Positions 5,021 to 63,052 of a DNA stretch of 64,000 nucleotides are shown here, piece after piece; position 1 is the first letter of the stretch; every line of letters starts with the position of its first letter. The notes below the pieces were generated by a model, which was given only the letters and a program-made list of their open reading frames with translations, was not told the origin of the DNA and made no database searches. Position numbers and translations under genes: made by a program. Origin of the DNA: Bacteroidales bacterium. GTDB taxonomy: Bacteria; Bacteroidota; Bacteroidia; Bacteroidales; UBA932. The stretch lies in contig JAFWOY010000029.1 of the NCBI GenBank assembly GCA_017509755.1, positions 62,001 to 126,000 on the forward strand. The letters run 5' to 3'.

Positions 5021-5039
5021 GGTGGAAACGGTGCCCCTT

Positions 5040-5091
5040 GGGCACACGAAAAAATCCTGATGAAGAATCATCAGGATTTTTTCGTGTGCCC
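5040..5091. terminator. Bidirectional intrinsic terminator after tRNA-Leu
   Basis: A perfect 24-bp inverted repeat (arms 5040-5063 and 5068-5091) closes on the loop AGAA. The inner part is a CCTGATGA/TCATCAGG stem flanked by six A and six T, so it works as a terminator in either direction. The outer part includes the last four acceptor-stem bases of the tRNA gene. Confidence 0.85.
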
Positions 5092-5172
5092 AGGACAAGA
5101 CTCGAACTTGCACGCCCTATAACGGGCACCAGCCCCTCAAGCTGGCGTGTCTACCAATTTCACCACCTGGGC
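5087..5172 (-). tRNA. tRNA-Leu (anticodon GAG)
   Basis: The minus strand folds as a class II tRNA. The acceptor arm is GCCCAGG pairing with CCTGGGC, the anticodon stem CCAGC/GCTGG encloses the loop TTGAGGG (anticodon GAG), there is a long variable arm, and the T loop contains TTCGAGT. The discriminator is A at 5087. CCA is not encoded. It reads leucine codons CUC and CUU. Confidence 0.95.
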
Positions 5173-12525: not shown

Positions 12526-12654
12526 GTGACAGTTTGGGGGTGTTGCTCTGGAAACGTCGCGCTCCGCGCGACCCCTCCCAAGCAAGCTTGGGCCCCTCCC
12601 TCTTACAGTGCCGAGGGTGGCATGGTTTCCAGAGCAACACCCCCAAACTGTCAC
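12526..12654. repeat. Long-arm cloverleaf element A (purD-folD)
   Basis: The arms 12526-12555 and 12625-12654 form a perfect 30-bp inverted repeat. The 69-base core folds into three hairpins: GTCGCGC/GCGCGAC (loop TCC), CCCAAGC/GCTTGGG (loop AA) and CCCTC/GAGGG (10-base loop). The second hairpin is flanked by CCCTCCC and GGGCCCCTCCC, which recur in the other copies. The purD stop codon (12651-12653) lies inside the right arm. The core is almost identical to element E, while the arms share nothing with it. There is no coding potential and no transposase. Confidence 0.9.
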
Positions 12655-24506: not shown

Positions 24507-24638
24507 TAGAGGCAGCATCCATCTCTTTCAAGACTACGGACCCTACGGGTCCTATCCCTCCCATCGCTAGCGATGGGCCCCTCCCACTCACGGCTGCGTG
24601 GGCGCAGACGGTCTTGAAAGAGATGGATGCTGCCTCTA
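24507..24638. repeat. Long-arm cloverleaf element B (pyrD-pyrF)
   Basis: The perfect 28-bp arms are 24507-24534 and 24611-24638. The core hairpins are GGACCC/GGGTCC (24538-24552), CCCATCGC/GCGATGGG (24560-24577) and CCCAC/GTGGG (24583-24602). All three stems differ in sequence from elements A, C and E yet pair fully. The linkers CCCTCCC and GGGCCCCTCCC are kept. It sits inside the pyr operon, starting six bases after the pyrD stop. Confidence 0.9.
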
Positions 24639-27143: not shown

Positions 27144-27281
27144 CGCTTCGCTGCGAAGGGTATATGCTCTGAAAACCGTCGCGCTCCGCGCGACCCCTCC
27201 CACCGCTTCGCGGCGGGCCCCTCCCTCTAATAGCCGAGGGTGGCTAAGGTTTTCAGAGCATATACCCTTCGCAGCGAAGCG
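27144..27281. repeat. Long-arm cloverleaf element C (after pyrB)
   Basis: The perfect 34-bp arms are 27144-27177 and 27248-27281. The core has GTCGCGC/GCGCGAC, then CCGC/GCGG (inside CCCACCGC/GCGGCGGG), then CCCTC/GAGGG. The same CCCTCCC and GGGCCCCTCCC linkers surround the middle hairpin. Hairpin 1 is identical to elements A and E; hairpin 2 and the arms are different. It lies between pyrB and the convergent permease gene. Confidence 0.9.
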
Positions 27282-44050: not shown

Positions 44051-44178
44051 GATTTGTGCTTCCATTGCGCACTGTTTGCATAAAAAACCACCCTCCCAAG
44101 CAAGCTTGGGCCCCTCCCCCTGAGCCGTGGGCGGCATTGTTTTTTATTGCAAACAGTGACTCCATTCCAGCACAAATC
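44051..44178. repeat. Long-arm cloverleaf element D (ftsY-pheT), divergent copy
   Basis: The inner arms (44070-44088 and 44139-44158) pair over 19 positions with one bulged base. The outer arms GATTTGTGCT (44051-44060) and AGCACAAATC (44169-44178) pair perfectly. Between them the two sides carry TCCATT in the same, not opposite, orientation. The core lacks hairpin 1, keeps CCCAAGC/GCTTGGG and the GGGCCCCTCCC linker, and has a weak CCC/GGG third stem. The ftsY stop is 12 bases outside the right arm. Confidence 0.82.
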
Positions 44179-61777: not shown

Positions 61778-61924
61778 CTGTAGTCCTTCTGCGGACAGGT
61801 AGTCTCTCCAGAACCCATGCCACCCTCGGCACTGTAAGAGGGAGGGGCCCAAGCGGAGCTTGGGAGGGGGTCGCGCGGAGCGCGACGGTTCTGGAGAGAC
61901 TACCTGTCCGCAGAAGGACTACAG
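61778..61924. repeat. Long-arm cloverleaf element E (htrA-rpoD), reversed core
   Basis: The perfect 38-bp arms are 61778-61815 and 61887-61924. The core runs in the opposite direction to elements A-D. On the minus strand it has GTCGCGC/GCGCGAC, CCCAAGC/GCTTGGG (loop TCC) and CCCTC/GAGGG with the same 10-base loop as element A. The right arm contains the last sense codon and stop codon (61919-61921) of htrA. Confidence 0.9.
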
Positions 61925-63052
61925 CGTCACGATGATCTCGTGCTGTCGGCCGTCGCGGACGACGGTCACGACGGCCTTCTCGCCGGGGCGGAGTTTGCTG
62001 ATCTGCTCCTGGAGGCCGGCGCTGTTGTGAACGGGGTTGAGGTTGATCTCCTTGATGACGTCACCTTCCGTGATGCCGCCCTTGTCAGCCGGACCGTCTT
62101 TCTGGACAGAAGCCACATAGACCCCATCGATATCGTTCAGGCCAGCCCGGGAGGCCACCTCCGCATTGACGTCCGTGATGCTGATGCCCAGCATCGCGCG
62201 CTGCACGGCGCCGAACTCGATGAAATCGTCCACCACCTTGCTGACGATGTTGACCGGGACCGCGAAGGAATACCCCGCATACGAGCCGGTCCGGGAAATG
62301 ATGGAGGTGTTGATACCGACCAGTTCACCGGCCGCATTGACAAGCGCGCCGCCGCTGTTGCCGGGGTTAACGGCCGCATCGGTCTGGATGAACGACTCGA
62401 CCCTGTACTGGCCGTCGTAGTTCGGCATCGAACGGCCTTTGGCACTGACGATTCCGGCGGTAATGGTTGAGCGCAGGTCATACGGACTGCCGATGGCCAG
62501 TACCCATTCACCGAGGCGCAGGTCATCGGAATTGCCGATCGGAACGACCGGAAGATCCTCAGCATCAACCTTGATCAGGGCGATGTCCGTGGCAGGGTCG
62601 GTTCCGACGAGTCTGGCCGGATAAACCTTATTGTTTTCAAGGGTGACTTCAATCACGTCTGCCCCGGCGATCACATGGTTGTTGGTCACGATATAGCCGT
62701 CGGGGCGGATGATGACACCGGAGCCCAGACCGACTTGGTCACGCGGCGTCTGGGCGAAGCCGAAGAGCAGGTCTAAAAGTGATCCGGGTTGCTGGTAATT
62801 AGCCCGTTGTGTCACCTTTACATAGACGACGGCCTGGACGGCTGTCTCGGCGGCATCGGAGAAATTCGGGACCTCCTTCACCTCCACCCGGCGTTGCGGT
62901 GCTGACTTTTTGTCAGTCACGCCGGATCCCACAATCGCGGCCATTTCGTCCTGGTCGCTCAGACGGCGGTCCATCGCCTTCTTGGCGGCCAAAAAACCCG
63001 TAAGTCCTGATACTGCGACAATTAAGAGCAGATAGAGAATTTTTTTAGCCAT
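61919..63052 (-). CDS. Periplasmic serine protease, DegQ/HtrA type
   Basis: This envelope protease-chaperone has 377 residues with an N-terminal signal anchor (residues 4-26). The trypsin-like domain has the triad in VTNNHVIAGAD (His), TDIALIKVD (Asp) and NPGNSGGALVN (Ser). One PDZ domain follows (from about residue 280, GISITDVNAEVASRAGL), so it is DegS-like in layout but closer to short HtrA proteins. Its stop codon is inside the arm of element E. It is divergent from dnaN. Confidence 0.94.
   Translation of the reverse strand: MAKKILYLLLIVAVSGLTGFLAAKKAMDRRLSDQDEMAAIVGSGVTDKKSAPQRRVEVKEVPNFSDAAETAVQAVVYVKVTQRANYQQPGSLLDLLFGFAQTPRDQVGLGSGVIIRPDGYIVTNNHVIAGADVIEVTLENNKVYPARLVGTDPATDIALIKVDAEDLPVVPIGNSDDLRLGEWVLAIGSPYDLRSTITAGIVSAKGRSMPNYDGQYRVESFIQTDAAVNPGNSGGALVNAAGELVGINTSIISRTGSYAGYSFAVPVNIVSKVVDDFIEFGAVQRAMLGISITDVNAEVASRAGLNDIDGVYVASVQKDGPADKGGITEGDVIKEINLNPVHNSAGLQEQISKLRPGEKAVVTVVRDGRQHEIIVTL

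What the first reader, a model, noticed from the sequence alone, without database searches (positions are those of the whole stretch)
61778..61924. Locus-specific perfect arms that begin at a gene's stop codon
The five cores are related but the inverted-repeat arms around them (28-38 bp perfect in A, B, C and E) have unrelated sequences. One arm always begins between the last codon and 16 bases after the stop of a neighbouring gene: inside the stop region for purD (A) and htrA (E), and 6, 16 and 12 bases after pyrD (B), pyrB (C) and ftsY (D). In A and E the arm includes coding bases, so that arm must be the original and the other an inverted copy. This suggests insertion or repair by fold-back copying of the target, or continuing gene conversion between arms.
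Basis: partly seen in the sequence, partly recalled or inferred. Interest (0 to 1): 0.88.

Follow-up and report, generated by a model that had tools for sequence, protein, structure and literature searches.

The report
Mobile Bacteroidales palindromes with self-matching arms
The five inverted repeats belong to a widespread, apparently undescribed family of folded mobile DNA repeats in Bacteroidales gut bacteria, whose two arms keep copying each other and whose middle often flips, while the claim that the arms are made by copying the target gene at insertion is not supported.

Summary
The arms are real: 38 bp perfect at 61778-61815/61887-61924, and 28-34 bp at three other sites. The window copies are 5 of about 42 in this genome. 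The family is present in 26 of 40 genomes of the genus and in at least 116 further stretches; every listed one is Bacteroidales. The core folds on one strand (GGGAGGG) into hairpins plus a pseudoknot, with strong covariation. No Rfam family matches; no viral contig carries it.

The fold-back prediction fails: ten empty sites hold neither arm, and a recent burst of copies shares its arms, so arms travel with the element. About half of the arms resemble arms elsewhere in the genome.

The gene-conversion half holds. At same-junction copies in different species, arm changes are mostly two-sided (36 transitions, 31 transversions, against 26 one-sided), with matched indels, and the core is inverted in 15 of 26 junction groups. 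Arm homogenisation plus spacer inversion is the published signature of polymerase template switching between inverted repeats. Only the outermost 5-13 bp sometimes look target-derived.

How the element spreads is unknown. Resident Y1 (RAYT-like) transposase genes carry different flanking palindromes, so it is not shown to be a REP. Verdict: new variant of a known kind.

The parts
61778..61815 (.). E, left arm (38 bp)
   Evidence: 100% complementary to 61887-61924
61887..61924 (.). E, right arm; its outer 6 bases are the last codon and stop of htrA (61919-63052, minus strand)
61816..61886 (+). E, core; the + strand is the GGGAGGG (folded) strand here
61816..61834 (+). E, hairpin H3; loop CCCTC 61823-61827
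   Evidence: covariation
61838..61842 (+). E, GAGGG, pseudoknot partner of 61823-61827
   Evidence: 100% of cells paired, UA/GC/AU and CG/UA types
61848..61864 (+). E, hairpin H2 (CCCAAGC gga GCTTGGG)
61870..61886 (+). E, hairpin H1 (GTCGCGC gga GCGCGAC)
   Evidence: not counted because its length varies
12526..12654 (-). A: arms 12526-12555 and 12625-12654 around a type-I core, between purD and folD; GGGAGGG strand is minus
24507..24638 (-). B: arms 24507-24534 and 24611-24638 around a type-II core, between pyrD and pyrF; GGGAGGG strand is minus
27144..27281 (-). C: perfect arms 27144-27177 and 27248-27281, C-subfamily, after pyrB; GGGAGGG strand is minus
44052..44178 (-). D: type-III copy with imperfect arms, also present in two relatives; GGGAGGG strand is minus

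Best explanation
These are copies of one family of non-coding interspersed palindromes of Bacteroidales, roughly 110-180 bp, that moves as a unit (arms plus core) and settles mainly at the 3' ends of genes. The core is conserved because one strand (GGGAGGG) folds into a multi-hairpin, pseudoknotted shape; the arms form the base stem and are free to vary as long as they pair. After insertion, replication through the hairpin repeatedly switches template from one arm to the other. That copies changes from arm to arm (so arms drift apart between loci but stay perfect within a locus), inverts the core, and sometimes extends the stem a few bases into the flank. Shown from sequence: family, covarying fold, multiplication with arms, concerted arms, core inversion, absence of arms at empty sites. 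Inferred: that the copying agent is polymerase template switching. Unknown: the enzyme that moves the element, and whether the folded molecule is RNA or single-stranded DNA.
For: Family: 42 exact-pattern copies in the own genome, 26 of 40 genomes in the genus, at least 116 stretches elsewhere, all listed ones being Bacteroidales MAGs. Fold: H2, H3, the stem and the pseudoknot covary; 95.3% of cells paired against 73.1% in shuffles, covariation score 0.584 against 0.178 shuffled and at most 0.131 slid. One-strand selection: in arms the mismatches are, on the GGGAGGG strand, G.U rather than A.C (48:11 outer) and G.A rather than C.U (16:1 outer, 45:4 inner). Multiplication with arms: ten G006 copies share core and arms; C-subfamily copies are about 91-98% alike across arms and core. 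Empty sites lack both arms. Concerted arms: 36+31 two-sided against 26 one-sided changes, plus matched indels; C-family conversions in both directions. Inversion: 15 of 26 junction groups contain a flipped pair; at site A, G032 and G015 are flipped although this region is about 97% identical. Template switching is documented to homogenise inverted-repeat arms and invert the spacer (PMC8604942) and to maintain perfect RNA stems (PMC8794818).
Against: Same-junction pairs are not all independent and some may be separate insertions of different subfamilies at the same junction (e.g. L205/L224). Stems were found by searching for pairing, which under-counts one-sided changes. Relatives are mostly 78-92% identical, so an ancestral single arm at an empty site could have decayed. 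The strand-specific mismatch bias shows that selection for pairing also acts, so conversion is not the only force. The flip at site A includes the imperfect outer stem, which a switch confined to the perfect arms would not move.
Confidence: 0.72

Rival explanations
1. Insertion by fold-back copying of the target: the element's free 3' end folds back and copies the flanking gene end, so that one arm is the old target and the other its inverted copy.
For: E contains htrA's last codon and stop inside an arm; the last Leu is conserved in relatives. At L215 the outermost 13 bp resemble the ancestral flank of the empty site L342.
Against: Ten empty junctions at A-E hold neither arm above chance; the empty site of L220 (L340) also lacks both; recent copies in G006 share arms; the E arm is homologous to L005's arm up to the last 5 bp.
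Confidence: 0.06
2. Ordinary compensatory selection: the stem is needed in a folded molecule, and each two-sided change is two mutations, the second restoring pairing.
For: Mismatches are biased to G.U and G.A on one strand, in outer arms too; the core clearly covaries under structural selection.
Against: Two-sided changes are 46% transversions, which cannot pass through G.U, and matched indels occur; two-sided changes outnumber one-sided ones 67 to 26; the core orientation relative to host genes is unbiased (60:57), so no host-transcript function is indicated; compensation alone does not explain core inversion.
Confidence: 0.17
3. The element is a REP-type repeat moved by a Y1 (RAYT) transposase that reads the folded single strand, and flips arise by re-insertion.
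For: One-strand fold; element presence associates with PF01797 genes across 40 genomes (23/3/4/10, Fisher p=2e-4); Bacteroidetes TnpA-REP subclass 2.6 is reported to be flanked by atypical structures (PMC6006769).
Against: None of 20 Y1 loci in the genus is flanked by the core; most have their own, different palindromes. The association is confounded by phylogeny. No replication-strand bias by GC skew.
Confidence: 0.15
4. Pre-existing terminator hairpins are the targets: the core inserts into the loop, so both arms pre-date insertion.
For: Copies lie mostly downstream of genes; IS elements that target terminators and REPs are known (own knowledge).
Against: Empty sites at A, B and E have no palindrome resembling the arms; recent copies share arms.
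Confidence: 0.04

Closest known systems
REP/REPIN repeats and their RAYT (TnpA-REP) transposases
   Same: Short, intergenic, palindromic, dispersed, mostly 3' of genes and between tandem or convergent genes; one strand folds
   Different: Core is about 70 bp with several hairpins and a pseudoknot, base stem of 20-50 bp with locus-specific sequence; no unpaired GTAG/CGTC tag; resident Y1 genes have other flanking palindromes
MITEs (e.g. the MITEs described in Porphyromonas gingivalis)
   Same: Non-coding, dispersed, inverted repeats, no gene inside
   Different: The inverted repeats are not a conserved terminal sequence; no parent transposon and no consistent target duplication found
Quasipalindrome correction / template-switch mutation
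   Same: Arm homogenisation and spacer inversion
   Different: Known from scattered short repeats and RNA genes; here it acts on a whole mobile family, repeatedly, with a large structured spacer
Parvovirus inverted terminal repeats (own knowledge, analogy only)
   Same: Long perfect stem around smaller hairpins, two orientations (flip/flop)
   Different: Internal chromosomal repeats with no replication gene; no evidence of terminal resolution

Membership tests
REP (RAYT-associated) | Conserved unpaired GTAG or CGTC tag next to a 20-40 bp hairpin | tested here: not met
   no such conserved tag; CGTC in type I is part of the H1 stem
REP (RAYT-associated) | Cognate copies flank a RAYT/Y1 gene | tested here: not met
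   0 of 20 Y1 loci carry the core beside the gene; several have unrelated palindromes on both sides
REP (RAYT-associated) | Y1 protein binds/cleaves the folded strand | not testable with these tools
   needs biochemistry
MITE | Conserved terminal inverted repeats shared with an autonomous transposon | tested here: not met
   arms differ between copies except inner ~5-10 nt and within subfamilies; no transposase family recurs beside 247 copies
MITE | Direct target-site duplication | tested here: inconclusive
   ATATGAAAACG / ATATGAAAAACG around the site B copy in G032 only; not seen at L220 or L215
Described structured RNA family (Rfam) | Match to a curated covariance model | tested here: not met
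   nothing credible in the window or in three other loci
Template-switch-maintained inverted repeat (works like) | Arms change together, including transversions and indels | tested here: met
Template-switch-maintained inverted repeat (works like) | Spacer inversion between orthologues | tested here: met
Template-switch-maintained inverted repeat (works like) | Events seen as single mutations within a lineage | not testable with these tools
   only species representatives are held

The most novel reading that the evidence does not exclude
A new class of bacterial mobile element whose recognised form is a pseudoknotted single strand standing on a sequence-free stem, and whose arm renewal and core flipping are part of its own propagation cycle (hairpin transfer by a dedicated, unidentified enzyme) and not passive replication errors.
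Probability: 0.15. Interest if true: 0.87.

Novelty: new variant of a known kind. Interest (0 to 1): 0.62.

Why it matters
It gives a natural, many-copy system in which one can watch how long perfect stems are kept perfect: compensation and copying make different predictions (transversions, indels, spacer inversion), and the data here favour copying with some structural selection. It also adds a large, structured, apparently undescribed repeat family to Bacteroidales, a major order of gut bacteria, and poses the question of what moves it.

Tried and rejected
Rfam, two searches: nothing relevant. Y1/RAYT as cognate enzyme: adjacency not met, association confounded. Solo C-type arms as ends of a longer autonomous element: the four found are truncated or interrupted copies. 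Replication-strand orientation: no GC-skew bias. Host-gene orientation: no bias. Recurrent neighbouring gene family: only ordinary cellular genes, no transposase. Viral contigs: none. Literature: no paper found that describes this family; the library holds open-licence papers only. L211 empty-site alignment and L210 flanks were not clean enough to use.

Full report
OBSERVATION. The perfect arms are real. Inverted-repeat search finds 38 bp (E, 61778-61815/61887-61924), 30 bp (A), 28 bp (B) at 100% and 39 bp at 95% (C; outer 34 bp perfect). D (44052-44178) is an older imperfect copy. E's arm includes htrA's last codon and stop, A's arm includes purD's stop.

WHAT IT IS. A core pattern, CCCTCCC-N-GGGCCCCTCCC, has 42 matches in the 2.54-Mb genome and none for the reversed control. 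None is in the viral contigs. Subfamilies differ in the core: I (A, E), C-type, II (B), III (D) and others.

FOLD. On the GGGAGGG strand the core reads: stem, H3 hairpin with loop CCCNN, URA, NNGGG, AGGGG, H2 hairpin, AGGGR, H1 hairpin, stem. Mutual information on 123 copies picks out H2, H3, the stem and a pseudoknot between the H3 loop and the NNGGG segment (for example 69 TA, 33 GC, 18 AT at one pair). A count on 40 sequences (39 loci from the genome collection plus E) gives 95.3% cells paired against 73.1% shuffled, 286 cells changed on both sides against 86.5, covariation score 0.584 against 0.178; sliding partners by one to three columns drops it to at most 0.131. H1 varies in length and was not counted. 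Rfam has no match.

ONE STRAND MATTERS. In 189 copies, mismatches in the arms are strongly polar: read on the GGGAGGG strand, G.U exceeds A.C (11:2 inner ten positions, 48:11 outer) and G.A exceeds C.U (45:4 and 16:1). Both G.U/G.T and G.A are tolerated in folded RNA and in folded ssDNA, so this does not decide between them. Orientation relative to host genes is even (60:57 at tandem junctions) and there is no GC-skew bias, which argues against a role in the host transcript.

WHERE IT SITS. Of 216 copies, 117 are between tandem genes, 88 between convergent genes and 11 between divergent genes; median distance from a stop to the arm is 22 nt (genes taken as the longest open frames, not annotated). 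So the 'arm begins at a stop codon' is the tail of a general 3'-end preference, or of selection against hitting promoters.

TEST OF FOLD-BACK COPYING. The window region was compared with syntenic contigs of related species. Empty junctions: A in four genomes (about 8-13 bp between the genes), B in one (pyrD stop overlaps pyrF start), C in one, D in two, E in two. None holds either arm above shuffled expectation. Two further empty sites for other copies, L220 against L340 and L215 against L342, hold neither full arm. In genome G006 ten recent copies share the same arms out to GCGCTCTGGGTG, and seven C-type copies of the own genome are about 91-98% alike through arms and core. Arms therefore come with the element. 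Two hints of limited target copying remain: CTGTA at E beyond the part homologous to L005, and the 13-bp outer tip at L215 that resembles the old flank.

TEST OF ARM CONVERSION. Eighty-five cross-genome pairs of copies share a junction, 45 in the same and 40 in opposite orientation; in 15 of 26 junction groups at least one pair is flipped. For 31 pairs with alignable outer arms there are 67 two-sided Watson-Crick changes (36 transitions, 31 transversions), 11 mixed, 26 one-sided, and about 20 gaps, which are two-sided by construction though some may be alignment artefacts. Examples: L207/L226, four differences in 21 bp, all in both arms, with the core flipped; L292/L004, a 3-base indel in both arms. 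Within the own genome, C-type copies L007 and L021 keep a left GCTGCGAAGG and right GCGGAGAAGG type, L013 has the right type in both arms and window copy C the left type in both.

MECHANISM. Arm homogenisation together with spacer inversion is the stated signature of polymerase template switching between inverted repeats (PMC8604942), proposed also as the way perfect RNA stems are made and kept (PMC8794818). I take that as the best explanation of the arms (inferred, not observed as an event). Structural selection also acts, as the mismatch polarity shows. What moves the element is open: Y1 transposase genes co-occur with it (Fisher p=2e-4, not corrected for phylogeny) but 20 Y1 loci lack it and most carry other palindromes, and no transposase recurs next to copies. 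A possible direct target repeat was seen once.

LIMITS. Relatives are species representatives, not strains; assemblies are mostly MAGs; pairs share branches; some same-junction pairs are different subfamilies. Collection counts are lower bounds.

Noticed in passing
window 5039-5092: A 25-bp perfect inverted repeat with a 4-base loop overlaps the 3' end of a tRNA (5087-5172, minus strand): a terminator-like hairpin whose outer stem repeats the tRNA end, possibly another case of stem extension into a gene.
   Followed up: no
L350-L369: Y1 (RAYT-like) transposase genes of this genus carry their own flanking palindromes, such as AATCGGTTGCG/CGCAACCGATT or AATCGTGTGCG/CGCACACGATT, unrelated to the element studied.
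   Followed up: partly
L036, L038, L041, L042 at the purD-folD junction: Where the element is missing, several relatives have a different short palindrome at the same junction, of the type GTCATTCCGGGCTTGACCCGGAATC.
   Followed up: no
L323 around 1543: A C-type copy whose H3 hairpin is interrupted by another palindromic insert (GTTGTATTTGAAGCCCC...GGGGCTTCAAATACAAC).
   Followed up: no
GGGAGGG strand of the core, e.g. window 61838-61870: Four G-runs (GGG-A-GGGG, H2, GGG-A-GGGG) could form a G-quadruplex as an alternative to the H2/pseudoknot fold.
   Followed up: no
L302 (G035), L005, L233, L274, L293: One junction is occupied by copies of different subfamilies in different species, with two copies side by side in L302: a hot spot.
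   Followed up: partly
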